A stretch of DNA of 64,000 nt from Tridacna crocea (lineage: Eukaryota > Mollusca > Bivalvia > Cardiida > Cardiidae), in contig OX031062.1 in the NCBI GenBank assembly GCA_943736015.1, positions 59,508,962-59,572,961 of the forward strand. Reading direction: 5' to 3'. Both the position numbers and the translations under genes were made by a program. Under the pieces are notes generated by a model, which saw only the letters and a list, made by a program, of their open reading frames with translations, ran no database searches and had not been told where the DNA came from. Each line of letters begins with the position of its first letter. Position 1 is the first letter of the stretch. Shown here one piece after another: positions 198 through 64,000 of the stretch.

Positions 198-426
198 TTA
201 ACTCTTCACCAAACAACAAAATTTTAGACTAGTCCAAAATGAAAGCATTTGCAGACGACAAGATAAAATTGTCTGGAAATTTGAAAATTATTTTAGGAAG
301 GGAAGAAAACATGGTGGGAAAAGGAGAAAATGCTGGTTACCAGCATTTTCTCCTTTTCCCTCCATGTTTTCAGAAGGCTTCTTTCTCAGGGTCGTTATAA
401 GTCGGGATTGTGTGGTAAAGAGTTAA
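198..426 (+). mobile_element. TTAA-bounded palindromic MITE (X-Y), reference copy
   Basis: This 229-bp copy shows the family plan. TTAA is followed by the X arm (CTCTTCACCAAACAACAAAA, then the block TGAAAGCATTTGCAGACGAC). Next comes the core, in which AAAATGCTGGTTACCAGCAT lies in the middle of a long palindrome bounded by AAACATGGTGGGAA and its complement. The Y arm (TTATAAGTCGGGATTGTGTG) ends in GGTAAAGAGTTAA. The tips are inverted repeats (CTCTTYACCA). There is no coding capacity. TTAA target sites and CCCTTT-type tips are typical of the piggyBac superfamily; the assignment is inferred because no transposase is present. Confidence 0.88.
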
Positions 427-1560
427 ATTTCATCAATAGCCAATTCTTTACCTGCCTATATACTTTTTGCACCTATTTACAGACAGCATAATTATAAAAA
501 TGTGTCTTGAACAATAGAAATTGTCTTTGAAAGAGTAGAAGTTGGGGAAAAAGAGCATCATAAGAACATCTTTTTTCTTTTTTTTTTACAGATAATTTAC
601 ACTTTAATCTGTTTAAAAATGATTTCACCCTTTTCCTCAAAGATACCTACTGCAGACACATTAAAATAACATTGGCAAAACATCCTATATTTACTGGTTA
701 TGTTCTTTCAGCTTGCCAAGCCTGGTCTTGGTCAAAATGTCCTGGCCAAACTTCCTTGGCCAGAATGACCTACATCCATACAAGTGCCACAAAGAAATAC
801 TGTGCAGAAAAAAAAATTATTACAGGGCAAAAGGAGTCCTATGACTAAATCTAGTTTTCCAGAATATATTGTATTCATCTACATATCAGTCAGCATGTGA
901 AGACTGATCTCTATACTATATACACTGATCTGTAAAGTACCTCAACTTGTGCTTGGCACTGCAAAATTTCAATATTGTAATGAATGAGAAAAAAGAAAGT
1001 AGATACAGATAAAGCTGAGCTACCTATCTTGAAGTGGTAGTACAAGCTACAGAAGAGAGAAAGAGGGAAATATATTTGAGAAACATATTTTCTTTCACTA
1101 TTGCACAAAGAGCATTTGGATCAAACAAAAATTGTATGACTCAATCTCATTATCCAGATTTCAGGAGAATTTCAAGATTTTCCATGAGTTTTTTTTTTCT
1201 CTTGCCTGCCAGGATTCCCCCACATCTGGGAAGGATAATGTCTGGGTACCAGGCATGCATGACAAAGCTTTGGTTCCATGCTTGTTAACAAAATATTTAT
1301 GAATGGGTTATTACTTACAAGTGGTTCGGCTTTATCACCTGCCTTTTGTTATGGGGGTATCAATTTCAGAAGAACCATCCAGCATGAATAAGCCTGACAT
1401 CCATATAATTTATGAGTAGTTTATTGACCTTCATTTGCTTTGTCTTTTTTCTGTATTTGTTTGAATGATGTATGTGGTTTTCAACAATATTAATGGGACC
1501 TAGATAACAGTGACAGTTCAACTATTGTTTTACTTGTTGATTTAAACGTCGGATTAAGAT
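427..1560. other. Stretch without recognisable gene or repeat
   Basis: AT-rich sequence between MITEs. A short inverted repeat lies at about 735-775 (GTCCTGGCCAA facing TTGGCCAGAATGAC). A strong-looking 3' splice site ends at 1212 (pyrimidine tract then GCCTGCCAG). It is followed by an open frame of about 29 codons to a stop near 1300, but no poly(A) signal or good donor follows, so I do not call an exon. Confidence 0.5.
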
Positions 1561-1800
1561 TCAACTCTTTACCAAATGACAACATTTTACACCTATCTAA
1601 ACTGAAAGGAATTTTGCAGGCAACACATTTAATGTGGCTGAAATAGTCGAATTTGTGGTGAAAATTGGGTAGAAAACACTGTGGGTAAACCGTAAAGGAA
1701 AAAATGCTGGTTACCAGCATTTTCTCCTATTCTTGTGTTGTTTTCAAAAGGCTTCTTTCTCATGGTCATCAAAACTTGTAATTGTTTGGTAAAGAGTGAA
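1561..1800 (+). mobile_element. TTAA MITE (X-Y), decayed tips
   Basis: X arm ACTCTTTACCAAATGACAAC, core ATGCTGGTTACCAGCATTTT, and Y arm ending TTTGGTAAAGAGTGAA. The bounding TTAA has changed at both ends (TCAA and TGAA), which suggests an older copy. Confidence 0.82.
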
Positions 1801-1846
1801 AAAGAAAAAAAAAAACAAGCTTCATTTCATCACTAATCCTTTTCTT

Positions 1847-2070
1847 TTAACCCTTTACCACACAATCCCAACTTTTAACGACCCTGGGAAAAAGGCCTTT
1901 TGAAAATGTGGTGGGAAAAGGAGAAAATGCTGGTAACCAGCATTTCCTCCTTTTCCCACAATGTTTTGTACCCTTCCCAAATTCTTATATTTTAGTCACA
2001 TTTATTTGGTTGTCTGCAAATACTTTCAAATGGGACAAGTCTAAAATGTTTTTGTGTGGCAAAGGGTTAA
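1847..2070 (-). mobile_element. TTAA MITE (Y-X)
   Basis: Starts TTAACCCTTTACCACACAAT (Y arm), palindromic core at about 1915-1965, then X arm in reverse ending GGCAAAGGGTTAA. TTAA is intact at both ends. Confidence 0.88.
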
Positions 2071-2307
2071 GAGGTTTAGTTGGAACAATTTGATTAATTC
2101 ACTTTCCATGTTTTGTCATTCTAATTTATAATGCGATCATTATAACTTTTTGTTTATTTGAGATTTAATTTGTTTATATATTAAAATGTGGCTATAATAT
2201 TTCTCGATGGATGAAAAGCATTGCATTTTCCTCAGTCATGAAAATAAAAGCTTTAAAAGTGCTGAATGTCATTTACTGAGATACCTGATAATGGAAAACT
2301 CATGCAT

Positions 2308-2537
2308 AATAACTCTTTACCAAACGACAAAATTGTAGACTTGTCCAAATTGAAAGCATTTGCAGTCGACAAAATAAATATGGCTCATAAATTGAAAATT
2401 GTGTTGTGAAGAATAGAAAACATTGTGGGAAATGGAGAAAATGCTAGTTACCAGCATTTTCTCCTCTTCCTACAATGTTTTCAAAAGGCTTCTTTCTCAG
2501 GATCGTTAAAAGCCGGGATTGTGTGGTAAAGAGTTAA
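2308..2537 (+). mobile_element. TTAA MITE (X-Y)
   Basis: Left tip AACTCTTTACCAAACGACAA with its TTAA altered to ATAA. The core is a near-perfect palindrome and the Y arm ends GTGTGGTAAAGAGTTAA. Confidence 0.87.
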
Positions 2538-2960
2538 TATGTGGGTTCAAACCAGAATTGGTACATTTTATTGACAGAATAGACATAGAACTATAATATA
2601 TACTGATAAAAACTGGCCAGGAATTTGCAACCCGTAGAGTATTTAGAATGATCTATTGGGTATTTAATTGTTTTACCAACTAAACACACATTACCTTAAT
2701 TGCTCTGCTCACCATAAATTGCTGCTGGAAACAGAGGAGCAGAAATTAGTGTCAAAAATTCAAGATAAGTGTGCAACCCTCGTAAATAACACATGTTCAT
2801 GGTAAAAGAAGTATGCAGTGGTACGCTTGTTCGTAATGTTAATTACTCCTTTCGAAGAGAGAAGAAAGTTCTTATAATGTTCAATGGTGATGTATCACCC
2901 TGGGTATTCCTGAAAACAGTAACTGATGTACTTACAGGTTTATTTTTTGAATCAGTGATC

Positions 2961-3190
2961 TTAACCCTTTATTCCATAGATACTCATTTCTAGGCGCTGC
3001 TTGTAGGAGCCTTTGGAAAACATTGTGGCAAAAGGTGAAATTGCTCGTGACGAGCAATTTCACCTTTTGCCACATTGTTTTCTATGCTATCAAAAGGTAT
3101 AATACACACATAAGAAATGGCTTCATCCTTGCTGTTATTTAGGGTCAATTAGAGATACCATAGAAATGCCTTATTGGGTAAAGGGGTTAA
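2961..3190. mobile_element. TTAA MITE, subfamily B
   Basis: Begins TTAACCCTTTATTCCATAGA and ends ATTGGGTAAAGGGGTTAA. The core reads AAAGGTGAAATTGCTCGTGA and folds on CTCGTGACGAG, unlike the TGGTAACCA centre of the main family. The outer core AAACATTGTGGCAAAAGG is clearly related. Two more full copies lie at 17795 and 35289. Confidence 0.85.
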
Positions 3191-3507
3191 ACCAAAACCA
3201 TTTTGGAGACAAATAGAAAAAGTTCGTAATAATCCCCTTATTTCATGAAACAACAGCTGTAGATAGATATATGATCTTTTTCATTTCTAATGCTGAAGCA
3301 ATTACATGTTGATTAACTGCAGTATAACAAAGAGACTTCTGGGTCTGTATTCACCAACCATTCTTGAGAAAAGTCTTAGTCTTATTCTCCAAGATATTCT
3401 AAGTTTGAAAGTAACACAACTTTTGATTGGCTAAACCATTTGGTTTAGCCAATCAGGATTTGTGTTACTTTTAGATATAGAAAATTCTGGAGAGCAAGAC
3501 AATGTAC

Positions 3508-4077
3508 ACATTATCTCCCGCTAGATGGCATTCTATAAATTCTCATCTATCTAATTTGGGCATCCTGGGTACAGAACTGAACCACTTTCCTATGCGACAA
3601 CCGTTACTTTGAATTTCAAACTAAAATAAACGTTTACTCAATAAAATGCTACCTCGTGCAATTCACTTAGCTATGATCAGCAGTCTAGAGTAGCCTGGCA
3701 TTCAGGCCCTGCATTTAAGTCATTCTAGTAAACAAGGTACACAACTACAGCAAAGTCACAGAAATATGTGTTGTTATTTGCCCTTCTTCTGAAATACAGA
3801 CATTCAGAAGATTGAGAACACAGAGTTTTCATTTTGCATTTTTACTTGACGACTTTGTTTTATGAAAAGGCTCTATTTAACGGACTGACACCAGTCTACA
3901 GTCTAGAGAAATCTGGAGCTAAAGCAGGTCTCATTTCTCCTCAAACGTATTGATAAAAGCTATTTTCTACATTACTACTTTATATAGCGTAATATTACAG
4001 TCAGCCCGCTTTTGGGGCTAGTGATGCGTTATATAAAACAGTTGAATCTTCGAAGAATATGACATGCGCAGACAATG
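3508..4077 (+). mobile_element. MITE starting CATTATCTCCCGC with 9-bp target duplication
   Basis: Inserted in the CCAAT palindrome. ACAATGTAC precedes it at 3499-3507 and recurs at 4078-4086. The left end reads CATTATCTCCCGCTAGATGG and the right end GACATGCGCAGACAATG. It is itself split by a further insertion at 3691-3898. Related copies are at 24565-24914 and, reversed, at 32495-32899. The 9-10 bp duplications suggest a Mutator-like source (inference). Confidence 0.78.
3691..3898. mobile_element. Short element nested in the CATTATCTCCC MITE
   Basis: 208 bp flanked by the direct repeat CAGTCTAGAG (3681-3690 and 3899-3908), a 10-bp target duplication. The ends are imperfect inverted repeats (TAGCCTGGCATT against TAGACTGGTGTC). 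The two other copies of the host MITE lack it, which confirms the insertion. Confidence 0.72.
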
Positions 4078-4398
4078 ACAATGTACGTTCTTCAGAATGG
4101 CTGGTGAATACGGGCCCCAGTTTTATTGCATTACCTGTATGGGTGATGTTCATTTTTAAAATCACATAATGATTATGATTTCTTTTTTAAATGTAAAATG
4201 TAATGCTTGTAATTTTTTCCATCCCATTGTTGATTGATTGTCTGAAACTCTGAATTTCAAGGCTACTTTGATTGAATGGGAAAATTGATTTCTGTAAATC
4301 TGAAGGCCAATGTAATTATTCAGTGTACTAAATAGCGTCAAGAGTGGCTGTCAAATACAGTCTTCAATTTACAAAATATTCAGATTGAATTGAGCCCT

Positions 4399-4627
4399 TT
4401 AACTCTTTACTAAACGACAAAATTTTAGACTGGTCCAAATTGAAAGCACTTGCAGATGCCAATATAGAAGTAACTCAAAAATTAAAATTTGTTTCCAGCA
4501 GGGTAGAAAACATTGTGGGAAAAGGAGAAAATGCTGGTTACCAGCATTTTCTCCTTTTCCCACAATGTTTTCAAAAGGCTTTCATCTCAAGGTCGTAAAA
4601 ACCAGGGATTGTTCGGGAAAGGGTTAA
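4399..4627 (+). mobile_element. TTAA MITE (X-Y), 229 bp
   Basis: TTAACTCTTTACTAAACGAC at the left, core palindrome perfect across GAAAACATTGTGGGAAAAGG and its complement. The Y arm carries the variant AAACCAGGGATTGTTCGG and ends GGGTTAA. Confidence 0.88.
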
Positions 4628-4832
4628 TCAGTTCAGATATGCAATATTCCAAGATAACTCTTGCATGGTTTGGTCAACATGATGTGCCTTTGCTAACAGC
4701 CTAGGCCAAGGATGTGCAGTTTGGTTATTAATCTGCTCTGTTAGATATTTCTAGAGATTTTTTTGTCAATACTGTCCTGAAAATTCTCTTTGTGAGTTCT
4801 GTTTTCAGGTGAAAAGTACATATTTAATTTAC

Positions 4833-4961
4833 CTTCGGGGATCTAAGAGATAATTTACAGAGCATAAAATCAGATAATCAGAACCTGCAGTCTCCGAGAT
4901 TGTCAGCAGGGTTTCTATATTGATCACAAGTTCTGTATAGATGTCATCTGATATGGCTTTA
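4833..4961 (-). CDS. Possible internal exon of an unidentified minus-strand gene
   Basis: A 129-nt stretch on the minus strand, preceded by a pyrimidine tract and TTTTTAG and followed by the donor AG|GTAAAT. One frame is open throughout for 42 codons plus split codons at each end. The product would include DDIYTELVINIETLLTISET and end near NYLLDPR, an acidic and leucine-rich composition unlike random AT-rich translation. I do not recognise the family. Part of the plus strand is open too, so chance cannot be excluded. Confidence 0.35.
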
Positions 4962-4988
4962 CTAAAAATAAAACCTGCAATACTGGCA

Positions 4989-5075
4989 GAAGCGTTTTAA
5001 TGACTGGCAGCACGCAACAAGCAGTATTCAAGCATGATGCACGATAATACTCAATAGCTGTTACGTGTTATGGTC
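4989..5075. repeat. Direct repeat flanking three MITEs, copy 1
   Basis: Contains CAAGCATGATGCACGATAAT. A diverged copy (CAAGCTTGATGCATGATAAT) lies at 5722-5810, directly after three MITE copies, as if one short duplicated sequence had been split by their insertion. Confidence 0.45.
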
Positions 5076-5303
5076 TTAACCCATTACCACACAATTCCTA
5101 CTTTCGACGACCCCGAGAAAGAATCCTATAGAAAACATTGTGGGAAAAGGAGAAAATGCTGGTAACCAGCATTTTCTCCTTTTCCCACAATGTTTTCTAC
5201 CCTTTACAAAACATATTTCAAATTTTTAGTCACTTTTTTTTTTTGTCTGCAAATGCTTTCGATTTGGACAAGCCTAAAATTTTGTCGTTTGGTAATGAGT
5301 GAA
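5076..5303 (-). mobile_element. TTAA MITE (Y-X)
   Basis: TTAACCCATTACCACACAAT at the left with a perfect core palindrome. The right end is GGTAATGAGTGAA, with the bounding TTAA changed. It directly abuts the next copy. Confidence 0.87.
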
Positions 5304-5498
5304 CCACTGTGGGAATAAAGTCTATAGGAAAGCTTGCTGGATCAAGAGAAAATACTATTGTAACCCAGCATTTTCTCCTTTTCTGACAGTGTTTCCTACT
5401 TTTCCCAAGCCAAATGCCATCATTTTAGGAACATTTGTCATGTGCAAATGCTTTTACCTTGGATTAGTCTAATATTTCTTTGTCTAATAAAGAGTGAA
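5300..5498 (-). mobile_element. TTAA MITE, strongly decayed (Y-X)
   Basis: Middle member of a three-copy chain. The core survives as GAGAAAATACTATTGTAACC and CCAGCATTTTCTCC. X arm remnants are ATGTGCAAATGCTTTTACC and TAATAAAGAGTGAA. Confidence 0.65.
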
Positions 5499-5721: not shown

Positions 5722-5810
5722 TAATTAAAAGCATGCAATAAGATGCATTCAAGCTTGATGCATGATAATGAATACCGGTACCATAAAGAAGTAACAAGTT
5801 ACGGCCTAAA
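5722..5810. repeat. Direct repeat flanking three MITEs, copy 2
   Basis: Partner of 4989-5075: CATGCAATAAGATGCATTCA followed by the shared GATGCATGATAAT block. Confidence 0.45.
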
Positions 5811-5958
5811 TGACTTTTGCAAGCTACATGTACTCTATGTTGAGACAATCTGTTTCTTTGCATATCCCATCTGCTCCTTTTTCAGTGCTTTTATGACATA
5901 AATAATTTACTTTTGTCACTATCATGGTAATGATTTAGATTTTTCATTATGTATATAG

Positions 5959-6104
5959 AGAATACGTACCTAGTGTTGTAGAATATCAAAAATATCTAAC
6001 GAGGTTGGGAGAATTGATAATTGTCGAGCCTTGGCGAGACAATTATCAATTCTCACAACCGAGTTAGATATTTTTGATATTCTACAACACTAGGTACGTA
6101 TTCT
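5959..6104. mobile_element. Hairpin (foldback) element, about 66-bp arms
   Basis: AGAATACGTACCTAGTGTTG runs into an almost perfect inverted copy ending CAACACTAGGTACGTATTCT. The spacer is about 14 nt around CGAGCCTTGGCGA. Arms are nearly identical over about 66 bp. I found no second copy in the window and no clear target duplication. Confidence 0.8.
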
Positions 6105-6840
6105 ATTTATCTTTCAACGTCTGATTGGTCGGTTTTTCTTATTCCTATTTATTATTCAACAAGAAAAAACACGAATTTATCGCTATATGCAAATTAGCTA
6201 ATGATACAGCACGCGCTTTTAATCTAATACACAAACAATTTACTCATAGACGTACAAGCCTGCACAAAGAAAGAAGTTCAAGATGTTTCTTCGTTTTTGT
6301 ACACAGTCAAACGTTTTCAAAAAAACAAACCGACAGAAATTGAATTTTTGTCAATATTGTAACAGAAATCAAGTGTGCATTTGACCAGAAATACGTTGGA
6401 TAAGCCGTCCCTTAAAAAAAATATGTCACGGGTAACCGGCAAACTGTTTGTGTACTCTCAAACGGTCGTGTAGTACACACCATTGAATTTTAAACGCAGG
6501 AGAAAAGTACATAGAGTTTTTGACAATTCTGTCGATCAGATAAGATTATGATATGGATACACATTTGACGTTTAAGACGGTTCCGTAGAACATTGGAGTT
6601 GTCACACTGCTATTCCTAGTGGAGATATTCAAGTTTGGAATATGCATCTCTGTTCGGGTATGGCGGGTGGAGTTACTTGGCCTTCACACACTGGATTTTC
6701 ATGGACTCTAGCTTCATTTGCAAATGCGAATTGATTGGAAAGCTGAGATTGGGCTGTGCAGATTTGAGACACGCTACTACTGGATGGGGGACAGTGATTT
6801 TCAAAACCTGACAGCCGGTGAAAGGTACGTGTCACCGCTG
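6105..6840. other. Stretch without recognisable gene
   Basis: Contains only short open frames. CTTTCAACGTCTGATTGG directly follows the hairpin. TAGTTGAAAGATAAAGTA near 7819 resembles the hairpin's right flank in reverse, so a larger element spanning about 5.96-7.84 kb is conceivable but unsupported. Confidence 0.35.
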
Positions 6841-8075: not shown

Positions 8076-8082
8076 CTTATGC

Positions 8083-8311
8083 TTAACTCTTTACCACATG
8101 AGAAAATTTTAGACTGATCCAAATTGAAAGCATTTGCAGACGACAAAATAAAGGTGACTGAAAAATTGAAATTTGTTCTGGGAAGGGTAGAAAACACTGT
8201 GGGAAAAGGAGAAAATGCTGGTTACCAGCATTTTCTCCTTTTCCCGCAGTGTTTTCAAAAGGCTTCTTTCTCGGGGTTGTCAAAAGTAGGGATTGTGTGG
8301 TAATGGGTTAA
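8083..8311 (+). mobile_element. TTAA MITE (X-Y), 229 bp
   Basis: TTAACTCTTTACCACATGAG at the left, GTGTGGTAATGGGTTAA at the right. The Y arm is of the AAAAGTAGGGATTGTGTGG type. Core palindrome is nearly perfect with CACTGTGGGAAAAGG. Confidence 0.88.
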
Positions 8312-12718: not shown

Positions 12719-12945
12719 TCAATTCTTTACCACACAACAATGTTAGACATGTCAATGTTGAAAACATCAGGGAATTACTAAAAATGTGTGGTTGAATAAA
12801 CATTATTTCTGTTTGATAGGATAGAAAACATTGTGGGAAAAGGAGAAAATGCTTATGACCAGCATTTTCTCTGTTACACATGATGTTTTTTGAAGCCCTT
12901 TCCTTCAGGGTCCTTAAAAACAGGGGTTGTTTGATAAAGAGTTAA
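12719..12945 (+). mobile_element. TTAA MITE (X-Y)
   Basis: TCAATTCTTTACCACACAAC, core AAATGCTTATGACCAGCATT, Y arm AAACAGGGGTTGTTTGATAA. It shares its right TTAA (12942-12945) with the next copy. Confidence 0.8.
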
Positions 12946-13172: not shown

Positions 13173-13229
13173 GCAAGATTTTTCAGTCATCTTTACTGTA
13201 TAACTGTAACAGGTGGTGAAAAATGTCGC

Positions 13230-13302
13230 GGTGCGACGGGGATTCGAACCCAGGGCCTCAGGAATACCATCCCTGCACTCTAACCAACTGAGCCACTGAA
13301 CC
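13230..13302 (-). other. tRNA-like sequence inside the TRIM LTR, copy 1
   Basis: 73 nt on the minus strand with an A-box-like TGGCTCAGTTGG and B-box GGTTCGAATCC. A 5-bp anticodon stem with a 7-nt loop would give anticodon GGT (threonine-like). The acceptor stem pairs poorly. It is probably an internal polymerase III promoter rather than a working tRNA. Confidence 0.6.
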
Positions 13303-13517
13303 ACATGTTGATACAGCCGCACGATATATCACAAATACCTGTACCCAGCTACATTATACCTTTATGTGTATCTGGAATAGACAGGTATACTACATACTTC
13401 CCCGCCCCATGAAGATTCATCCACGAATCCCACAATTTCTGCTACCCCATCTCAAATTCTAATAAGTGGGTTACTTATGTTGGGCGCCAAATGTAACAGG
13501 TGCTGAAAAAATGTCGT

Positions 13518-13590
13518 GGTTTGACCGGGATTCGAACCTAGGGCCTCAGAAATACCGTCCCTGCACTCTAACCAAGTGAGCTACTGAACC
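13518..13590 (-). other. tRNA-like sequence inside the TRIM LTR, copy 2
   Basis: Same 73-nt unit in the other LTR, with TAGCTCACTTGG and GGTTCGAATCC boxes. Its presence at the same offset in both LTRs shows it belongs to the LTR rather than being a chance SINE insertion. Confidence 0.6.
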
Positions 13591-14717: not shown

Positions 14718-14949
14718 CTCTTATCCCATTACCACCCAATCCCTACTTTTGATGCCCCTGAAATAAAGAAACCTATTGAAAACATTGTGGAAAAAGGAGA
14801 AAATGCTGGTAACTAGCATTTTCTCCTTTTCCTATAATGTTTTTTACCCTTCACAAAACAAATTTCAAATTTTCAGTCACTTATTTTGTCGTCTGCAAGT
14901 GCTTTCGATTTGGACAAGCCTAAAATTTTGTCATTTGGTAATGAGTTAA
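14714..14949 (-). mobile_element. TTAA MITE (Y-X), chained
   Basis: TTAACTCTTATCCCATTACC at the left, core centre TGGTAACTAGCA, right tip TTTGGTAATGAGTTAA shared with the following copy. Confidence 0.84.
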
Positions 14950-17794: not shown

Positions 17795-18011
17795 TTAACC
17801 CTTTACTCCATAGATACTCTTTTCTACACATTGCTTGTAGGAGATTTTGGAAAACATTGTGGCAAAAGGTGATGAGCAATTTCACCTTTTGCCACAATGT
17901 TTTCTGTGCTGTTAAAAGGGGTTCTATACATATAAAAAATGGCTTTATCCTTGCTGTTATTTAGGGTCAATTACAGATGCCATAGAAATCTCTCATGGAG
18001 TCAGGGCTTAA
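17795..18011. mobile_element. TTAA MITE, subfamily B
   Basis: TTAACCCTTTACTCCATAGA, core with one half shortened (GCAAAAGGTGATGAGCAATT), then TTAGGGTCAATTACAGATGC. Its right TTAA is shared with the main-family copy that follows. Confidence 0.82.
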
Positions 18012-22576: not shown

Positions 22577-23019
22577 TAACTCTGTACCAGACCCAAATAT
22601 TTCAGCCTTAATCCAAGCCGGAAGCATTTAACCCTTTACCACACAATCCCAACTTTTAACGACCCTTAGAAAGAAAGCTCTTGAAAACATTGTGGGAAAA
22701 GGAGAAAATGCTGGTAACCAGCATTTTTCTCCTTTTCCCACAATGTTTTCTACCCTTTCCAAAGCAAATTTCAGTTTTTGAGTCACATTTATTTTGTCGT
22801 CTGCAATTGCTTTGTATTTGGACAAATCTAAAATTTTGTCGTTTGGTAAAGAGTTAAAGAGTTAACTGGTGAATATGTCTCAAATGATGGGATATGTTCT
22901 GGAAAAGGTGAGAAAATGAGAAAATTTTGGTTACAGCCATTTTCTTTCTTTCCCACAATGTTCTAAAAAACCATTTTCTGTAGGGTTTTAAAACATGGCA
23001 TAGTTCCATAAAGGGTTAA
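22577..23019 (+). mobile_element. Decayed TTAA MITE split by an inner copy
   Basis: Left piece TTAACTCTGTACCAGACCCA to GAAGCATTTAA (22577-22631). The right piece begins at 22862 (TTAACTGGTGAATATGTCTC) and runs through a core relic to CATAAAGGGTTAA. Confidence 0.62.
22628..22857 (-). mobile_element. TTAA MITE (Y-X), nested
   Basis: TTAACCCTTTACCACACAAT, core near-perfect (one extra T in the right half), X arm ending GTTTGGTAAAGAGTTAA. TTAA stands at both junctions with the outer copy. Confidence 0.86.
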
Positions 23020-26493: not shown

Positions 26494-26540
26494 GTAGTTC
26501 CTCTTTGTACTTCATGGAACCTTTCATAAAGTTCAAGTGA
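26494..26540 (+). CDS. Weak exon candidate between splice-like sites
   Basis: TTTATTTTTTTTCAG before and GATA|GTAAGTAG after. With the first AG as acceptor every frame meets a stop. Using the AG four bases on leaves 15 open codons (FLFVLHGTFHKVQVI). Could equally be a non-coding exon or chance. Confidence 0.15.
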
Positions 26541-29293: not shown

Positions 29294-30429
29294 AACAATT
29301 TCTTTAAAAATCTTCTCCTCCAAAACCAGAAGGCCAATCTTGATAAAACTTGGCAGGAATGTTCCTTGGGTGAAGCTCTACAAAAATTGTTAAAAGAATT
29401 TAATTCCAACAAAAGCTCTGGTTGCCATGGCAACAAAATGGCTGAAAATGGAAAAAATCTTTAAAAATCTTCTTGTGACAAACCATAAGGCCGGGAGCAT
29501 TCATATTTTGTATGAAGCATCATTGGGTGACCCTTTACCAAAATTGTTAAAATTATTCCCCTGGGATCATATTTGGGCTTTGCCCGGGCGCACCCTATTT
29601 TACATAGAAACAAAGAAGGAAAGCTTTAAAAAATCTTCTTCTGACAAACCATAATGGCTAGAGCATTCATATTTGGTATGTAGCATTATCTGATGATCCT
29701 CTACCAAAATTGTTAAAATTATTCCTCTGCTCTCATATTTGGGCTCTGCCCGGGCGCACCCTATTTTAAAATCTTTAAAAATCTTCTTGTGACAAAACAT
29801 AAGGTTGGGAGCATTCATATTTTGTTTGAAACATCATCGGGTGACCCCTTACCAAAATTGTTAAAATCATTCCCATGGGGTCATATTTGGGCTTTGCCCG
29901 GGCACACTCTATTTTACATAGAAATTTAGAAGGAAATCTTTAAAACTTCTTCTGGTGACAAATCATAATGGCTAGAACATTCCTATTTAGTGTGTAGCAT
30001 TAACTGATGATCTTCTACCAAAATTGTTGAAATTATCCTTCTGCGGTCATATTTGGGCTCTGCCTGGGCGCACCCTTTTTTACAATCTTTAAAAATCTTC
30101 TTGTGACAAACCATAAGGCGGAGGGCGTTCATATTTTGTTTGAAGCATTATCGGGTGACCCCTTACCAAAATTGTTAAAATTATTCCCCTTGGGTCATAT
30201 TTGGGCTTTGCCCGGGCGCACCCTATTTTACATAGAAACAAAGAAGGAAATCTTTTAAAAATCTACTGGTGACAAACCATAAAGGCTAGAGCATTCATAT
30301 TTTGCATGTAGCATCATCTAGTGACCCTTTATAAAAATAATTAAAATTATCCCCTTGGGGTCATATTTTGGCTCTGTGCCCTGGTGCACACTATTTTACA
30401 TGGAATCATAGGAAATTTTTAAAATCAAT

Positions 30430-31984: not shown

Positions 31985-32267
31985 TTAACTCATTACCGAA
32001 CAACTTGGTTTTAGACTAGTACAAATTGGAAGCATTTGTAGACAACAAAGTTATTGTTATTAAAAAAATTGAAATTTGTTTTGTGAAGGGTAGAAAACAT
32101 TGTGGGAGAAGGAGAAAAAGGCTGGTAACTAACTTTTTCTCCTTTTCCCACAATGTTTTCTACCCTTCACAAAACAAATTTTAATTTTTTAGTTCCTTTT
32201 ATTTTGTCGTCTGCAAGTGCTTTCAATTTGGACCAGTCTAAGATTTAGTCGTTTGGTAAAGAGTTGA
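31985..32267. mobile_element. Foldback TTAA MITE with two X arms (XX)
   Basis: 283 bp. TTAACTCATTACCGAACAAC starts an X arm (TTTTAGACTAGTACAAATTG). After the core, the right side is also an X arm in reverse (AAACAAATTTTAATTTTTTA, TTGTCGTCTGCAAGTGCTTT, GTCGTTTGGTAAAGAGTTGA). There is no Y arm. The length is 54 bp above the standard 229, the difference expected from replacing Y by X. Confidence 0.86.
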
Positions 32268-35288: not shown

Positions 35289-35517
35289 TTAACCCTTTAC
35301 TCCATTGATACTCATTTCTATGCATTGCTTGTAGGAGCCTTTGGAAAACATTGTGGCAAAAGGTGAAATTGCTCGTGACGAGCAATTTCACCTTTTAACA
35401 CAGTGTTTTCAACACTATCAAAAGGTATCATATACACATAAGAAACGGCTTCATCCTTGCCGTTATTAAGGGTCAATTAGAGGTACAATAGAAATACCGT
35501 ATGGGGTAAAGGCTTAA
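35289..35517. mobile_element. TTAA MITE, subfamily B, 229 bp
   Basis: TTAACCCTTTACTCCATTGA, core centre GCTCGTGACGAGC, then TTATTAAGGGTCAATTAGAG, ends GGGGTAAAGGCTTAA. Confidence 0.86.
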
Positions 35518-47421: not shown

Positions 47422-47745
47422 TTAACTCTACACCACACAATCCCTTCTTTTAACCCATTACCAAACGACAATATTTTAGACTGGTCCAAATTGAAAGCAA
47501 TTGCAGACGACAAAATAAAAGTGACTGAAAACTTGAAATTTGTTTTGTGGAGGGTAGAAAACATTGTGGAAAAAGGAGAAAATGCTGGTTACCAGCATTT
47601 TCTCCTTTTCCCACAATGTTTTCTAAAGGCTTCTTTCTCAGGGGCGTCAAAAGTAGGGATTGTATGGTAATGGGTTAATGACCCTGAGAAAGAAAGCCTT
47701 TGAAAACAGGATGGGAAAATGAGAAAATGCTGGTTATGACCAGTC
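47422..47745 (-). mobile_element. TTAA MITE split at its inner TTAA by another copy
   Basis: Outer copy: TTAACTCTACACCACACAAT and CCCTTCTT before the insertion, TGACCCTGAGAAAGAAAGCC and a core relic after it. In intact copies this place reads CTTTTAACGACCC, which holds one TTAA; here TTAA stands on both sides of the inner copy. Confidence 0.85.
47450..47678 (+). mobile_element. TTAA MITE (X-Y), 229 bp, inserted in an older copy
   Basis: TTAACCCATTACCAAACGAC, core perfect except one base, Y arm AAAAGTAGGGATTGTATGG, ends TAATGGGTTAA. It directly shows the TTAA target duplication. Confidence 0.9.
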
Positions 47746-48252: not shown

Positions 48253-48870
48253 TAGCAGAGCTTTGAATTGAATCAGCAAGTTTCAAGCTTTATATGATAA
48301 CTGACTGGGCAACTTGGACTGGCAGCCCAGACTGCAGTACCTCAAAAGGTAAAGCACAGAGGCTGTTTTAGTTGAACTCTTTACCAAACAAGTCCTGATT
48401 TTAATAGCAGAGCTTTGAATTGAATCAGCAAGTTTCAAGCCTCATATGATGCCGACTGGGCAACTGGGATTGGCAGCCCAGGCTGTAGTACCTCAAAAGG
48501 TAAAGCACAGGGTTTTAAAACCAGAGGCTGTTTTAGTTGAACTCTTTACCAAAGAAGCCCTGGTTTTCTTAGGAGTGCCTTAAATTGAATCAGCAAGTTT
48601 CAAGCCTCATATGATATAGACTGGGCAACTGGGATTGGCAGCCCAGGCTGTCACTAGTACCTCAAAAGGTAAAACACAGGTCTTAAAACCAGAGGCAGTT
48701 TTAGTTGAACTCTTTACCAAAGAAGCCCTGGTTTTCTTAGGAGTGCCTTAAATTGAATCAGCAAGTTTCAAGCCTCATATGATATAGACTGGGCAACTGG
48801 GACTGGCAGCCCAGGCTGTCACTAGTACCTCAAAAGGTAAAGAACAGGGTTTGTAAACCAGAGGCTTTTC
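48253..48870. repeat. Tandem array (4 units, about 150-168 bp) including a MITE tip
   Basis: Each unit has TTGAATCAGCAAGTTTCAAG (or the AAATTGAATC form), GGCAGCCCAGGCTGTAGTAC, CCTCAAAAGGTAAAGCACAG and GTTTTAGTTGAACTCTTTAC. The last block is the Y tip of the TTAA MITE, so a MITE fragment has been amplified with its flank. Units start at about 48253, 48403, 48572 and 48739. Confidence 0.82.
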
Positions 48871-57403: not shown

Positions 57404-57454
57404 TGGTGATGGAAAATGTTTAGCAATGTCGGGTTTAACTAGCATGTGATAATG

Positions 57455-58624: not shown

Positions 58625-58765
58625 CCCATCTATGAAAGTTATTTGAAAGAAAGGAAAAATCTGTTTTTGAGAAATATAAAATTTGACATTGTGGAAAAAA
58701 GGAGCACTATTTGTTCCACCATATTTTCCATCCTTTTGAAAATTAATGCCATTACATGACCCACA
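58621..58765 (-). mobile_element. Decayed TTAA MITE, chained
   Basis: TTAACCCATCTATGAAAGTT, core relic GACATTGTGGAAAAAAGGAG, no clear right tip. Confidence 0.5.
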
Positions 58766-59008
58766 ATTATATTATTTGTTGTTTGCTATCAATTTTGCGG
58801 TGTGGATTTGCCACAATTCTGTTTTCTGGTATGTTTAGTCTGATTTTGTTTCTCCAGAGTCAAATAACGACGTTTTTTTTGCCCAAAATAGAACTTTGTA
58901 GAAGCCAATTAAGGAGTTTTATTATCGGCCTTGTACATTGGTATATAGGTTTTTCACATCACACCAACTTCAAAAATTTATATGAAAAAACAATACAGTT
59001 CATCAATA
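58766..59008. other. Stretch without recognisable gene
   Basis: Nothing recognised. Confidence 0.35.
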
Positions 59009-59106
59009 ATTAGCCCTTTACCAAACAATCCCTGGTTTTTATGACCCTGAGATAGAAGCCTTTTGAAAACATTGTAGGAAAAAGATAAAATGCTGGTAAC
59101 CAGTAT
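59009..59106 (-). mobile_element. Left half of a TTAA MITE
   Basis: TTAGCCCT-type tip (ATTAGCCCTTTACCAAACAA), Y arm, left core half to GCTGGTAACCAGTAT, where another repeat takes over. Confidence 0.78.
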
Positions 59107-59107
59107 A

Positions 59108-59398
59108 AGATAATAAATATGTATAATTTCCATATTGTCTTCTTCAGATGCTATGTTGAAAGCTTTGTCTGTGTATTTCCTGTATGTAAATGAGAAGTTG
59201 CTCATGTAAAAATAGACCGTGCTTCTGGTCGGCGTTGACCTGGGCTGTAGTAAATCTCTAATTTCTCTTGTTGTTGGATGGTTTTCAACTACTGGGGTTT
59301 TATGAATGAAAATTATAAGGCTTTGGGAGCATAAAGATTATCTTTTTATATTTTGTTAAAATTTTTGTCCCAAAATCTGAAGGCCACCTTTAAAGTTT
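59108..59398 (-). repeat. Dispersed repeat of about 400 bp, copy 2 (reversed)
   Basis: GTATGTAAATGAGAAGTTGC, GTTGTTGGATGGTTTTCAAC, TACTGGGGTTTTATGAATGA and AAGGCCACCTTTAA are the reverse of 36510-36915. It meets a half MITE with no gap, so its insertion may have removed the rest of that MITE. Confidence 0.6.
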
Positions 59399-59683
59399 CA
59401 TTACAAATGTTTAGCAAGCTAAGGGTTAATTCCATTGTGAATGATTTGTGACCACTGAATCATTGTCTGACCAAGCATTGTAATGACAAACACCAGCACA
59501 CAGTGCTTTATTGGTCTCCCATGACTTGGTGCTAGTTGCACATTTGTGGATAACCAACCACTATTGAGTATTATGATATTGTACTTTCAATAAATATTGT
59601 GCTGAAAAGTGCAACATGCTCAGTACGCACTAAGAATATTGGCAGTTAGTGTTAAAAAGCATGACTGTTGTTACCATATTTCT
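59399..59683. other. Stretch without recognisable gene or repeat
   Basis: Nothing recognised. Confidence 0.35.
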
Positions 59684-59834
59684 CTTAACTTGCCTAAATT
59701 GGAAGCAAATGCTGATAAAAAATTAACTATTGGCCAAATTGTAAAAATGTCCATTGATAGACTAAATAACGCATTGTGTCAAGAAGAGAAAAAGCTGGTT
59801 ACCAGCAGTTTTGTTTGTCTGGTAAAGGGTTAGC
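59684..59834 (+). mobile_element. TTAA MITE with shortened core and Y arm
   Basis: X arm CTTGCCTAAATTGGAAGCAA, core GAAAAAGCTGGTTACCAGCA, then directly the tip GTCTGGTAAAGGGTTAG. Confidence 0.65.
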
Positions 59835-59994
59835 TCTAATTGACTTAGTATGGAACTGACAGACATCCTGAAAGATTACTTACTGGTAGCGGTTGTATAT
59901 TTTTGTGCATGATTTGGACTAATGTAGAACTGACCATTTACAAGCCAAAGACAAACATATGACTCCCAGGGGAATTTACAAGCTTATTTCTGGC

Positions 59995-60216
59995 TTAACG
60001 CTTTACCACACAATCCCAACTTTTAATGACCCTGAGCAAGAAAGCCTCAGGAAACATTGTGGGAAAAGGAGAAAATGCTGGTTACCAGCATTTTCTCCTT
60101 TTCCCACAATGTTTTCTAACCTTTCCAAATTAAATTTCAGTTTTTGCCTTTATTTTGTCATCTGCAAATGCTTTCAATTTGGACTAGTCCAAAATGTTCT
60201 CGTTTGGTAGAATTAA
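59995..60216 (-). mobile_element. TTAA MITE (Y-X)
   Basis: TTAACGCTTTACCACACAAT, core perfect, X arm shortened, ends CGTTTGGTAGAATTAA shared with the next copy. Confidence 0.85.
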
Positions 60217-60443
60217 CCCTTTCACAATGGACTGGACCGCACGTTTAACAGCCTTGATGAAAAATTCCTCTGAAGCATTGTGGAAGATGGAGAAAATGCT
60301 GATACCTAGAATTTACTCATTCCATAGTTTTTCTATCCTTCGTTTCACAAATGAATCTTACAATTTGAGTGACATAGAATTTATAACCTATAAATGCTTA
60401 TTTTATCAACATGTCTCAATGTTCTTGTCTGGTACAGAATTAA
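60213..60443 (-). mobile_element. Decayed TTAA MITE (Y-X), chained
   Basis: TTAACCCTTTCACAATGGAC, core relic AAAATGCTGATACCTAGAAT, ends GTCTGGTACAGAATTAA. Confidence 0.7.
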
Positions 60444-60492
60444 CTCTTAACAGAACAAAACTAATTAGACTTGTCCAAAGCAGCTGCCATTT
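60440..60492 (+). mobile_element. TTAA MITE X-end fragment
   Basis: TTAACTCTTAACAGAACAAA and TTAGACTTGTCCAAAGCAG, then unrelated sequence. Confidence 0.6.
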
Positions 60493-60532
60493 TTTATACC
60501 CCTGCAAAAAATTTGGGGCCATATAGTTTCTC

Positions 60533-60761
60533 TTAACTCATTACCAACCAACAAAATTCTAGGCTTGTCCAAATTGAACGCATCTGCAGACTACAAAATA
60601 AAAGGGACTGAAAACTTGAAATTTGTTTTGGGAAGGGTAGAAAACATTGTGGGAAAAGGAGAAAATGCTGGTTGCCAGCATTTTCTCCTTTTCCCACAAT
60701 GTTTTCCATAGGCTTCTTTCTCAGGGTCGCCAAACGTAGGGATTGTGTGGTAATGGGTTAA
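60533..60761 (+). mobile_element. TTAA MITE (X-Y), 229 bp
   Basis: TTAACTCATTACCAACCAAC, core centre TGCTGGTTGCCAGCA, Y arm AAACGTAGGGATTGTGTGG, ends TAATGGGTTAA. Confidence 0.88.
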
Positions 60762-60764
60762 GTC

Positions 60765-60915
60765 AGTCTTACCTGGTTGTCATTATTTTCTCCATCTTCC
60801 TCTATGTTTTCTACTATCTCACACATGAATTCCATTATTTTTGCAACATTTTATAAATATGCTGCCAGTTTTTTTTTTTCCAAAATGAAGGAGTCTAATA
60901 TTTTTGTAGTGAGAA
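60765..60915 (-). mobile_element. Decayed MITE right half
   Basis: TTATTTTCTCCATCTTCCTC, GTTTTCTACTATCTCACACA, and X-arm relics to GTAGTGAGAAAAT. Confidence 0.45.
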
Positions 60916-61025
60916 AATCAAAATATTGCTCAACCTAAACAATTTCCATAGTTGGCATAGTATTTCAAAAGCCATTATTTTTGTAGATGCTTTAAAATTT
61001 TAAGTCTTCATGAAGTTTGCTAATG

Positions 61026-61230
61026 TTACCCTGTAGCAAACAATCCAGAGTTTTGATAACCAAATTACACGCTTTCATCCAAGATATTGTTGAAAAAGGA
61101 TAATATGATGGTAAGCAGAATTTTTTCATATCCCACAATCTTTTTTAGACTTTCACAGTCAAATCTAATAATTTTAGCCAAATTTGATTTGCCATCAGTA
61201 AAATGTTTTCAATATTGATTGGCAGAAAAG
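61026..61230 (-). mobile_element. Decayed TTAA MITE (Y-X)
   Basis: GTTACCCTGTAGCAAACAAT, core relic GATAATATGATGGTAAGCAG, X relic GCCATCAGTAAAATGTTTTC. Confidence 0.5.
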
Positions 61231-61480
61231 TGAAATATGCACAGATAATATTATACAATTATATTACAATATTACACTGTATGAGAAAAGCACATGGGAT
61301 AGGTTCGCTGCTTTTAGCCTTATGGAATCCTTGGAGATTCAATATGAATTATTCATCAACCAACTGTTCCAATAATAGGCAACAATTTGTCATAGATTGT
61401 GGTCACAATGGATACATAACTTCTTTTGTTCTCAGTTATCTTTGACCTCTGGTCAACTCTTTAAAAGTTAGGGTTAATAA
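61231..61480. other. Stretch without recognisable gene
   Basis: Nothing recognised. Confidence 0.35.
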
Positions 61481-61483
61481 CTC

Positions 61484-61712
61484 TTAACCCATTACCACTC
61501 AATCCCTACTTTTGACGCCCCTGAGAAAAAAGCCTTTTGAAAACACTGTGGGAAAAGGAGAAAATGCTGGTAACCAGCATTTTCTCCTTTTCCCACAGTG
61601 TTTTCTAACATTTCCAAAACAAATTTCTATTTTTCAGTCACCTTTATTTTGTCGTCTGCAAATGCTTTCAATTTGGACCAGTCCAAAATTGTCTTGTGTG
61701 GTAATGAGTTAA
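61484..61712 (-). mobile_element. TTAA MITE (Y-X), 229 bp
   Basis: TTAACCCATTACCACTCAAT, perfect core of the CACTGTGGG type, ends TTGTGTGGTAATGAGTTAA. Confidence 0.88.
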
Positions 61713-62050
61713 TCACATGACAATGTTTTAGTCTGGTGTGACTTCAAAGCATTTGCAGAGGACAAAGGAATTTGACCCAAACGATTTGACTTGCTTCTGA
61801 AAGAGCAGAAAAATGTTTTGGGAGAAGTAGAACCTTTATATTATATTTCAAACTGGAGTCCAAAAAATAAAATGGCATATCAGCTCTTCCCACTGCGGAG
61901 AACTTTTTTTTTGACCTAGCAGCAAACAAAAAATATTAAAAAAAAAAAAATGAAATTTTGTCCATTGATAGGTAGAAAACAGTGTGAGAAAAGGAGAAAG
62001 TGCTGGTTGTTCACCATTTTTTCCCTGTTTCACAACATTTCCAAAATTAT
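61709..62050 (+). mobile_element. Decayed TTAA MITE pieces
   Basis: 61709-61830 is an X arm (TTAATCACATGACAATGTTT, CAAAGCATTTGCAGAGGACA). 61950-62050 is an X/core piece (TTTTGTCCATTGATAGGTAG, GAAAGTGCTGGTTGTTCACC). Confidence 0.55.
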
Positions 62051-62230
62051 TTCTTGCCATTCTTTGGTTGTACATAGTCAATGTAGTCATGATTATTTGA
62101 CATTGGGTGAATCAATGCAATATCAGAGACCTCATAAAATCAAATTTAGTTGTCAGGGGCCTTGGTTCCTGTTACAGAAGAAATATTGATGAAGTTGTTG
62201 ATTCTTTTCTGATGAAAAACCTGTTCCCTC

Positions 62231-62459
62231 TTAACTCATTACCACACGAGAAAATTTTAGACTGGTCCAAATTGGAAGCATTTGCAGACGACAAAATAAA
62301 AGTGACTCAAAAATAGGAATTTGTTCTGGTACGGGTAGAAAACACTGTGGGAAAAGGAGAAAATGCTGGTTACCAGCATTTTCTCCTTTTCCCACAGTGT
62401 TTTCAAAAGGATTCTTTCTCAGGGGCGTCAAAAGTAGGGATTGAGTGGTAATGGGTTAA
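62231..62459 (+). mobile_element. TTAA MITE (X-Y), 229 bp
   Basis: TTAACTCATTACCACACGAG, perfect CACTGTGGG core, Y arm AAAAGTAGGGATTGAGTGG, ends TAATGGGTTAA. Confidence 0.88.
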
Positions 62460-62467
62460 CAACTGCT

Positions 62468-62722
62468 TTAACCCTTTACCACACAAAAAATATTATAGCC
62501 TGGTTCAAACAACAAAATATTAGACTGGTCCAAATGGAAAGCACTTGCAGACGACATAATAAATGTAACTCAGAAATTGAAATTTGTTTCCAACAGGGTA
62601 GAAAACATTGTGGGAAAAGGAGAAAATGCTGGTTACAAGCATTTTCTCCTTTTCCAACAATGTTTTCAATAGGCTTCTTTAACAGGGGTGTTAAAAGTCG
62701 TGATTGTGTGGTAATGGGTTAA
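62468..62722 (+). mobile_element. TTAA MITE (X-Y) with duplicated tip segment
   Basis: TTAACCCTTTACCACACAAA. AATATTATAGCCTGGTTCAA and then AATATTAGACTGGTCCAAAT are two versions of the same X segment. Core centre TGCTGGTTACAAGCA, ends TAATGGGTTAA. Confidence 0.84.
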
Positions 62723-63599
62723 TCCGGAGGTTGTGGGCTTTAATCCAGGCTCAACCTAAATTCACTATGTAGGCTTGATGAATATCTTCATGACTGTTTA
62801 CATGGGAAGGGAGCTAGTGACCTAGATTGTTGCGCATTGAAATGGCAACAAAACACCAAATATGCACATGGTCATTTGTGTCCACTTGACATAATTGTAA
62901 AAATAAGGTCTATCATTAAAAATGTATAAAAAAAAAAACAACAAATGAACAATACATTCTCAATTTTAGATCTTGAAATGCTGTTTTTATGGGTTCATCC
63001 ATCTCGAATAGAATCAGATTTCAAACATGTCATGATTGCACTAATCACAGAGTTTTTCTGATATTTTCTTAAGTCCTTTGGATGACTCAGAATTTTCTGG
63101 ACATTATTGGCAGTCAAGGTCTACAAGAAGCTTGGTAAACTTAGAAGATTCAAATTGTATGTATGATGTCATGTATTGATCAGAAATATTGATCGCCATG
63201 GCAAACATGGTGGCTGGAATTCAGAGAGATTCCATCAAATCACCAAGACCAATATTTAGCATCAGATGAGTAAAGGTTGCTTTAATAGTATTGGATATTC
63301 TGTGGTTATTTTATAAAATAAGAGGATTTTTTTTGTGAGAGTGTCTATTGTAAATTATATTGGAAGTGTTACAGGTCTTAACCTTCATATAAAACAATAT
63401 GTTTGTTGGATTTTTCATATGATCAGTGCTGAATCAACAGCTGGAACAGATAGATGGTAAAGTTTCTACCTTATAATTACTTTGGCCTCAAATTGGCATC
63501 TCTTGTGCTAAACTAGGTCTTCTGCTCTTACATGGTATTATATGTAATCTTGAGTTTAAATATATTGTAGTTGAGAGAATACAGCTTTTAAAAAACATG
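62723..63599. other. Longest repeat-poor stretch near the end
   Basis: GGAGGTTGTGGGCTTTAATC at the start is a faint tRNA-like relic. The rest has only short open frames and no convincing splice pair. Confidence 0.4.
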
Positions 63600-63675
63600 T
63601 AATACATGTATAGGAAGAAAATCCTTATAACTAGCATTTTTTTTTTCCCCACACTGTTTGCTATCCTTTAATTAA
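63600..63675 (-). mobile_element. MITE core relic
   Basis: AGGAAGAAAATCCTTATAAC and CTAGCATTTTTTTTTTCCCC, ending at the TTAA of the next copy. Confidence 0.45.
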
Positions 63676-63905
63676 CCCATTACCACACAATCCCTACTTT
63701 TGACGACCCTGAGGTAGAAGCCTTTTGAAAATATTGTGGGAAAAGGAGAAAATGCTGGTAACCAGCATTTTCTCCTTTTCCCACAACATTTTCTATCCTT
63801 TCCAAATCAAATTTCAATTTTTTATTTAAATTAATTTCGTCGTCTGCAAAATTAATGCTTTCAATCTGGACTAGTCCAAAATTTTGTCGTTTGGTAAAGA
63901 GTTAA
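63672..63905 (-). mobile_element. TTAA MITE (Y-X)
   Basis: TTAACCCATTACCACACAAT, near-perfect core, X arm with a short inner duplication (CTGCAAAATTAATGCTTTC), ends GTTTGGTAAAGAGTTAA shared with the next. Confidence 0.87.
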
Positions 63906-64000
63906 CTCATTACCAAACAAAATTGTAGGTTTGTCAAAATTGAAAGCATTTGCTGACAAAATAAAAGTGACTTAAAATTTGAAATTTGTTTTGTGAAGGA
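63902..64000 (+). mobile_element. TTAA MITE (X-Y), cut by the window end
   Basis: TTAACTCATTACCAAACAAA through the X arm to TTTGTTTTGTGAAGGA. Confidence 0.82.

What the first reader, a model, noticed from the sequence alone, without database searches (positions are those of the whole stretch)
198..64000. One TTAA-bounded palindromic MITE family fills over a third of the window
By eye there are about 85 near-complete copies of about 229 bp plus 30-40 fragments, roughly one per 500 bp. They range from nearly perfect to heavily decayed. Such density for a single short family is exceptional and implies repeated rounds of activity with strong local or TTAA-rich targeting. TTAA sites and CYCTTTACCA tips point to a piggyBac-type transposase acting in trans; that part is inference.
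Basis: partly seen in the sequence, partly recalled or inferred. Interest (0 to 1): 0.85.

Follow-up and report, generated by a model that had tools for sequence, protein, structure and literature searches.

The report
Giant-clam-like genome crowded by piggyBac MITEs
One 229-base jumping-DNA parasite that makes no protein has copied itself very many times through an animal genome, probably a giant clam's, most likely using the cutting enzyme of a rare larger relative whose matching end sequence can still be found.

Summary
A 229-bp TTAA-bounded family covers 39.5% of the window in 140 segments. It is genome-wide: its exact 31-bp core occurs 183,553 times in the 1.049-Gb genome, 0 for the reversed control. 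A pattern demanding both exact tips with TTAA occurs 53,992 times, control 0. Genome share is roughly 14-21%. The window is 2.9 times denser than the mean. Random choice among TTAA sites predicts at least as many abutting copies as seen.

The piggyBac guess now has evidence. One piggyBac element (PB-F) shares 35 of 38 right-end bases with the MITE, including a motif PB-F repeats four times; its sister PB-E shares 29-30; four other piggyBac families share 13-22. Left ends share little beyond the tip.

The central 67-bp hairpin is the best conserved part and shows more paired changes than expected.

The count is 2.7 to 9 times the upper end (20,000) quoted for animal piggyBac MITEs (PMC4912750). 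Size and karyotype point to Tridacna crocea. Known kind, extreme scale; present activity not shown.

The parts
198..64000 (.). Range occupied by the family: 140 segments, 39.5% of bases
198..426 (+). First complete copy, TTAA to TTAA, 229 bp; up to 95% identical relatives on other contigs
305..371 (.). Central hairpin (33-bp arms) of that copy; this module is the best-conserved part of the family
2309..2537 (+). Complete copy
8083..8311 (+). Complete copy, among the closest to consensus (K2P 0.065)
22628..22857 (-). Copy closest to consensus (K2P 0.060), nested in a decayed older copy; joining its flanks in a script gives an older element spanning model 1-225 (81.5 bits)
14946..14949 (.). TTAA shared by two back-to-back near-full copies (also at 12942, 21239 and 40103)
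31985..32267 (.). Composite L-core-L element (left arm on both sides of the hairpin); 3 of 123 cores in the window are of this kind
47450..47678 (+). Complete copy, 95.6% identical to one on another contig (L033), the closest pair among the 45 copies compared
62231..62459 (+). Complete copy
2961..3190 (.). Second family (MITE-2): ends TTAACCCTTTATTCC.../...GGGTAAAGGGGTTAA; core differs from the main one by 4 pairs changed on both arms and 1 changed on one arm

Best explanation
A non-autonomous piggyBac-superfamily MITE. Each 229-bp copy carries about 13-bp tips (TTAACTCWTTACC left, TTAACCCWTTACC right), one copy of a subterminal motif next to the right tip (CAATCCCKACTTTTRACGACCCT) and a central 67-bp hairpin; it codes for nothing. 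A transposase of the PB-E/PB-F clade binds the right-end motif, cuts the element out and pastes it into any TTAA, duplicating it. Shown: copy number, TTAA boundaries, tips and right-end motif shared with piggyBac elements that have open transposase frames, a few nested insertions, no need for targeting beyond TTAA. Inferred: that this transposase (or an extinct close relative) did the moving, that it binds the motif, and that copy number rose by cut-and-paste with repair or replication gain. The hairpin was kept by structural selection or by arm-to-arm conversion in the source lineages (inference).
For: Genome-wide counts with zero reversed-pattern controls. Eighteen of 20 arbitrary stretches hold the family, some weakly. 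TTAA at both ends in 33 of 54 near-full window copies against about 4% per end by chance. PB-F (6,376 bp, C7) and PB-E (about 7.2 kb; the C15 and C3 copies are 99.6% identical over 7,223 bp, and L027 and L028 are 99.5-99.6% identical to the C3 copy over the 4.1 kb held) end in TTAA with these tips. Right-end 38 bp against the two main MITE tip types: PB-F 35 and 33, PB-E 29 and 30, both ends of four other piggyBac families 13-22. A query from PB-F's right end gives 28 places that match only its first 38-39 bases at 97-100% (40 of 451 candidates scored); the one of the 28 inspected (L073) is a full MITE. PB-F carries the motif four times at 35-bp period, one copy identical to the MITE's 23 bp; PB-E three times in diverged form. 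Open frames of 481 and 486 aa match DDE_Tnp_1_7 over its full length at 299.9 and 297.1 bits; PB-F's also matches solved piggyBat 9c0f and piggyBac 6x67, with aligned aspartates. Joining the flanks of 61 near-full copies restores an older spanning copy in 4, against 16 of 1,187 mismatched joins.
Against: The left end matches PB-E and PB-F in 17-19 of 38 bases, hardly more than other families (11-17). The frames found lack the first 130 or so residues of the solved piggyBac chains, and PB-F's listed start is TTG, so a complete transposase is not shown; an upstream exon was not sought. Ends were resolved for six piggyBac families; those of L009/L012 and L010 were not, and most of the 118 transposase matches were not fetched, so a better partner may exist. 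Sampled copies are not very young: closest to consensus K2P 0.060, closest pair 95.6%. Three copies identical over 220 bp (listed) turned out to share their flanks, so they are duplicated host segments, not fresh insertions. Only about a dozen PB-E/F loci were seen, so the main mover may be extinct. Tip classes correlate but not strictly: 20,047 of 53,992 are mixed. The nested-insertion test rests on 4 cases.
Confidence: 0.9

Rival explanations
1. The MITE is moved by another TTAA-targeting superfamily, Kolobok.
For: Kolobok also uses TTAA and is the presumed partner of the Xenopus T2-MITEs (PMC6004289, passages).
Against: PMC6004289 gives Kolobok termini as RR, with AGGRR for T2-MITE; here the tips are CYC, as in the genome's own piggyBac elements, and the right 38 bp match a piggyBac element at 35 of 38. 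No search for Kolobok transposases was made in this genome.
Confidence: 0.03
2. A local or segmental amplification (satellite-like), not a mobile family.
For: The window is 2.9 times denser than the genome mean, some copies are back to back, and at least one set of identical copies was spread by duplication of a larger segment.
Against: 183,553 exact cores genome-wide in near-equal orientation; 18 of 20 arbitrary stretches positive; TTAA at boundaries; abutting rate not above random TTAA insertion.
Confidence: 0.01
3. A SINE or a Helitron-type repeat, as automated pipelines might label it: for Tridacna crocea one paper's table lists 16.01% SINE and 22.48% rolling-circle (PMC11700175, section 9 read).
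For: The high published shares for these classes in what is probably the same species may include this family; not tested.
Against: Fixed TTAA at both ends, inverted tips and an end shared with a DNA transposon. The only Rfam matches at gathering score in the window are two tRNA-like stretches outside the family.
Confidence: 0.02
4. PB-F acquired its right end from a MITE (by capture or conversion), so the shared 38 bp say nothing about the mover.
For: PB-E copies carry MITE copies inside them, so contact between the two is real.
Against: PB-F and PB-E are homologous from base 1 of the right end for 285 bp (71%), both carry the motif as a 35-bp-period repeat, each in its own form; that looks native, with the MITE keeping one unit.
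Confidence: 0.04

Closest known systems
Pokey / mPok1 and mPok2 (piggyBac superfamily, Daphnia; PMC4912750, passages read)
   Same: piggyBac element with non-autonomous MITEs sharing TIRs and TTAA target; two autonomous groups each with a matching MITE
   Different: mPok averages 760 bp with at most a few tens of copies; here 229 bp and 53,992 copies by the strictest pattern. The same paper quotes 50 to 2x10^4 copies for other metazoan piggyBac MITEs
T2-MITE (Kolobok superfamily, Xenopus; PMC6004289, passages read)
   Same: TTAA-targeting MITE with subfamilies of different age
   Different: tips AGGRR and a presumed Kolobok transposase
piggyBac transposase (PDB 6x67/6x68) and piggyBat transposase (9c0f)
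   Same: homologous transposase with aligned aspartates; asymmetric ends with internal repeats (recalled)
   Different: a MITE expansion of this scale is not known to me for either (recalled, not searched)
Tridacna crocea repeat annotation (PMC10858879, passages; PMC11700175, section 9 and passages)
   Same: probably the same species; PMC10858879 gives DNA transposons 37.68% of the genome, with 'Unknown' DNA elements 34.9%
   Different: in what I read neither names this family; 'mite' occurs 0 times in the main text of PMC11700175, which lists piggyBac-derived proteins among expanded gene families, and twice in PMC10858879 (MITE-hunter and its reference)

Membership tests
piggyBac-superfamily MITE | TTAA target duplicated at both ends | tested here: met
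   33 of 54 near-full copies have TTAA at both ends; 53,992 genome copies fit TTAA-tip...tip-TTAA, control 0
piggyBac-superfamily MITE | Ends shared with a larger piggyBac element of the same genome | tested here: met
   right end 33-35 of 38 with PB-F and 29-30 of 38 with PB-E; left end little beyond the tip, 17-19 of 38
piggyBac-superfamily MITE | That element encodes a DDE_Tnp_1_7 (DDD) transposase | tested here: met
   PF13843 at 299.9 and 297.1 bits over the full profile; aligned aspartates in piggyBat (catalytic role recalled). N-terminal part not found in the frame
piggyBac-superfamily MITE | Short, no coding capacity | tested here: met
   229 bp, so no long frame fits; the window's ORFs of 110 aa or more were listed but not searched against families
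piggyBac-superfamily MITE | Precise (seamless) excision by the transposase | not testable with these tools
   needs an assay or population resequencing
Kolobok MITE | RR (AGGRR in T2-MITE) terminal bases next to TTAA | tested here: not met
   tips CYC; definition from PMC6004289 passages
Satellite DNA | Long head-to-tail arrays at few loci | tested here: not met
   dispersed in 18 of 20 arbitrary stretches, both orientations equal
SINE | Variable target duplications, no inverted tips | tested here: not met
   fixed TTAA and inverted tips
SINE | Pol III-type RNA ancestry and 3' tail | tested here: inconclusive
   no Rfam match at gathering score in family copies; promoter boxes and tails not scanned

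The most novel reading that the evidence does not exclude
The hairpin, not the tips, is the heart of the family: a hairpin module kept largely perfect by compensated changes that has been paired with different TTAA-type ends (main family and MITE-2). Its cruciform or hairpin form may promote amplification, for example by aiding strand separation or copying during excision and repair. If so, it explains how a cut-and-paste element reached perhaps 0.8 million segments and about a sixth of a giant clam genome.
Probability: 0.2. Interest if true: 0.85.

Novelty: new member of a known kind. Interest (0 to 1): 0.6.

Why it matters
One short non-coding DNA parasite taking an estimated 14-21% of a one-gigabase animal genome is comparable in share to the best-known SINEs (comparison recalled), but moves as DNA. 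It has an identifiable candidate partner, so MITE amplification and its control become testable. If the species is Tridacna crocea, it bears on the claim that transposon growth in giant clams accompanied photosymbiosis (PMC11700175): a large piece of that growth might be one mis- or unclassified piggyBac MITE family.

Tried and rejected
Searching the genome with whole MITE consensus sequences gave 0 candidates; the tool skips very common words, which is the likely cause, so I counted exact patterns instead. PB-A (2,765 bp, TTAACCCTTTATATAC tips) looked like the partner at first but shares only 16-21 of 38 right-end bases; PB-B, PB-C and PB-D were likewise rejected. A strict two-partner story (CTTT tips with PB-F, CATT tips with PB-E) looked strong in 92 copies, but genome-wide 20,047 of 53,992 tip-perfect copies are mixed; I keep it only as a correlation. 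Recent insertion was sought in three copies that look identical in the list: all 220 bp are identical, but so are the 50-bp flanks bar one base, so a larger segment was duplicated. Local targeting was rejected by simulation. Genome share: the plain sample mean is 21.0% (bootstrap 14.3-27.8%); scaling by exact cores gives 15.3% from the same sample (bootstrap 9.5-36.9%), 13.8% from the window ratio and 14.2% pooled. The 0.8 million segments (183,553 x 140/32) assume the window's ratio and are rough. Species: COX1 was found but no named animal collection was at hand. Literature: ten searches listed no paper that I recognised as describing this family; only open-licence PMC papers are held, and I looked into six of them.
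Full report
What was claimed and what is there. A profile built from the window's copies covers 25,251 of 64,000 bp (39.5%) in 140 segments; 76 of 140 are at least 90% of full length, 94 at least 75%, 46 shorter. The consensus is 229 bp from TTAA to TTAA. Of 54 near-full copies 33 have TTAA at both ends, 43 at the left and 40 at the right, against 4.0% by chance within the same slack. The 2.5 kb on either side of the window also hold copies.

Genome-wide or local. The window is C7:59508962-59572961 of a 1,048,827,098-bp assembly in 31 contigs. In 20 arbitrary 2.5-kb stretches (round coordinates), 18 have a match at E 0.01 or better, some of them weak; mean coverage is 21.0%, range 0-50% (bootstrap 14.3-27.8%). 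The exact 31-bp core occurs 91,934 times forward and 91,619 reverse, with 0 for the reversed pattern. The window has 32 and the 50-kb sample 12, so the window is 2.9 times denser than the genome, and scaling by cores puts the family at 13.8-15.3% of the genome. TTAA with exact left tip, 188-216 bases, exact right tip with TTAA occurs 53,992 times, control 0.

Targeting. 33 of 139 neighbouring segment pairs abut (gap from -5 to +6 bp); in 15 of the 33 both abutting ends are model termini (counted from its list). Sequential random insertion of 139 copies into 269-600 starting TTAA sites predicts means of 23-47; with the 269 sites that lie outside the family today the means are 39-47 (95% range 31-56), so 33 is no excess. 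Each insertion makes one more TTAA next to the last copy. Joining the flanks of 61 near-full copies restores a spanning older copy in 4, against 16 of 1,187 mismatched joins (with looser margins 5 of 61); the best case (22628-22857) restores model positions 1-225.

Anatomy. A left arm of about 103 bp, a central palindrome of 67 bp with 33-bp arms, and a right arm of about 51 bp. The arms are unrelated except for the tips. Folding as single-stranded DNA gives z = -9.4. Identity to consensus over 92 copies (66 window, 26 sample) is 0.91-0.955 in the bins at 106-165, 0.87-0.88 at the two ends and down to 0.73 elsewhere. Changes on both core arms that keep the pairing number 28 of 2,949 cells, against a shuffle mean of 8.4 and maximum of 20 in 500; 7 of the 28 are one change at one pair; 12 cells changed on both arms without pairing and 315 on one arm only. 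Relatedness of copies inflates the 28, since inherited changes count repeatedly. A second family has other ends (2961-3190; cores also at 17839-17918 and 35332-35424). Read from the window's letters, the core at 3003-3096 differs from the main one at 4 pairs changed on both arms and 1 changed on one arm; that at 35332-35424 at 3 pairs on both arms, 2 on one arm and 1 on both arms unpaired; the third core is shortened. Of 123 cores in the window 80 have left and right arms, 3 have left arms on both sides, none has right arms on both, 27 have one arm and 13 none. In the 100 rows printed a number of elements start with right-arm sequence on the left, by eye.

Partner. The genome has 118 listed matches to PF13843, most of the first 30 nearly full length. 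Ends were worked out for six families. PB-A: 2,765 bp, TTAACCCTTTATATAC. PB-B: about 2.6 kb, TTAACCCTWGTCATGC. PB-C, 2,883 bp, and PB-D, 2,693 bp, each from one copy by its inverted TTAA ends. PB-E: 7.2 kb, with C15 and C3 copies 99.64% identical over 7,223 bp and ending at TTAA. PB-F: 6,376 bp, one copy on C7, ends set by its tips and by homology to PB-E. The ends of L009/L012 and L010 were not found. MITE right end against 38 bp of each: PB-F 35 (CTTT-type MITE) and 33 (CATT-type), PB-E 29 and 30, all others 13-22; left end: PB-E/F left ends 17-19, others 11-17. A 301-bp query from PB-F's right end lists 12 places over longer lengths, itself included, and 28 places that match only bases 1-38 or 1-39 at 97-100% (40 of 451 candidates scored); the one of the 28 inspected, L073, is a full MITE. 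The right end of PB-F repeats CAATCCCGACTTTTAACGACCCT at positions 17, 52, 87 and 122, the second unit identical to the MITE motif; PB-E has diverged units at 17, 52 and 87. In the window this motif occurs 35 times with up to 3 mismatches, and 0 times in one shuffled window. The transposase frames are open (481 aa, listed start TTG; 486 aa) and match Pfam DDE_Tnp_1_7; PB-F's matches piggyBat 9c0f (E 1.4e-40) and piggyBac 6x67, from chain residue 131-140 on. PB-E itself carries MITE copies inside.

Tip classes. In 92 copies the base that separates CTTTACC from CATTACC is linked between the two ends (56 and 17 concordant, 11 discordant, 8 others with a third letter left out of the test; Fisher p = 5e-10), and CATT/CATT occurs only among the 45 copies closest to consensus. 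Genome-wide 24,762 are CATT/CATT, 9,183 CTTT/CTTT and 20,047 mixed (by subtraction). PB-E has CATT tips and PB-F CTTT tips (with CCC for ACC). This fits successive waves with related transposases but does not prove it.

Age. K2P to consensus: minimum 0.060, median 0.132, 90th percentile 0.309 over 92 copies. The closest pair among 45 was 95.6%. Three identical copies on C1 share their flanks and so were duplicated with them. The copies sampled are therefore not fresh, whereas PB-E copies are nearly identical. Present MITE activity is open.

Species. The assembly size equals the 1048 Mb listed for Tridacna crocea in PMC11700175 Table 2, the 18 large contigs fit its 18 pseudo-chromosomes (PMC10858879), and contig C31 carries COX1 near base 26,500, not far from the 25-kb mitochondrial genomes of T. 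gigas and T. derasa (abstracts). T. derasa (1,060 Mb, 18 chromosomes, same listing) is a near miss, and another T. crocea assembly is 1.30 Gb. This is an inference, not an identification.

Comparison with what is known. PMC4912750 (passages) quotes 50 to 2x10^4 copies for other animal piggyBac MITEs, citing a 2002 review that I did not see. The present family has 53,992 copies by the strictest pattern and 183,553 by the core, 2.7 to 9 times that upper bound, and perhaps 0.8 million segments. The quoted range is old, and newer counts may exist outside the library. The giant clam papers report 67-72% repeats with large unclassified DNA or rolling-circle shares; whether this family sits among them was not tested.

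Verdict. The scale and the maintained hairpin are the interesting parts.

Noticed in passing
window 2961-3190, cores at 17839-17918 and 35332-35424: Second TTAA-bounded family (MITE-2) with a hairpin homologous to the main one but other ends; its piggyBac partner was not found.
   Followed up: partly
window 5953-6110: Near-perfect palindrome, 78-bp arms, 91% complementary, 2 bp apart; no match to the family's profile there.
   Followed up: no
window 3379-3500: Inverted repeat with 60-bp arms, 80% complementary; possibly another small element.
   Followed up: no
window 29454-30424: Tandem array with periods of about 148-166 and 314 bp, 3-6 units.
   Followed up: no
window 48357-48866: Three tandem units of 168 bp (91%) whose unit contains AACTCTTTACCAAAG, like the MITE left tip; possibly a MITE-derived tandem repeat.
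   Followed up: no
window 13229-13302 and 13517-13590, minus strand: Two tRNA-like stretches (43.0 and 33.2 bits) 288 bp apart; one is called tRNA-Thr(GGT); possibly tRNA-derived repeats.
   Followed up: no
G000 C8:56.71-56.76 Mb and C13:4.48-4.61 Mb: Clusters of piggyBac transposase matches, mostly partial; possibly tandem remnants.
   Followed up: no
L014-L019, L023 (PB-A): piggyBac elements of about 2.76 kb, 98-99.9% identical to each other, with transposase matches free of stops: recently mobile.
   Followed up: partly
L079-L081 (C1:3765692-3766011, 5310192-5310511, 5311957-5312276): MITE copies identical over 220 bp with shared flanks (one difference in 320 bases at most): part of a larger duplicated segment.
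   Followed up: yes
PMC11700175, section 9: Text and Table 2 disagree on rolling-circle and DNA shares for T. maxima (text 15.91% and 23.26%, table 23.26% and 15.02%).
   Followed up: no
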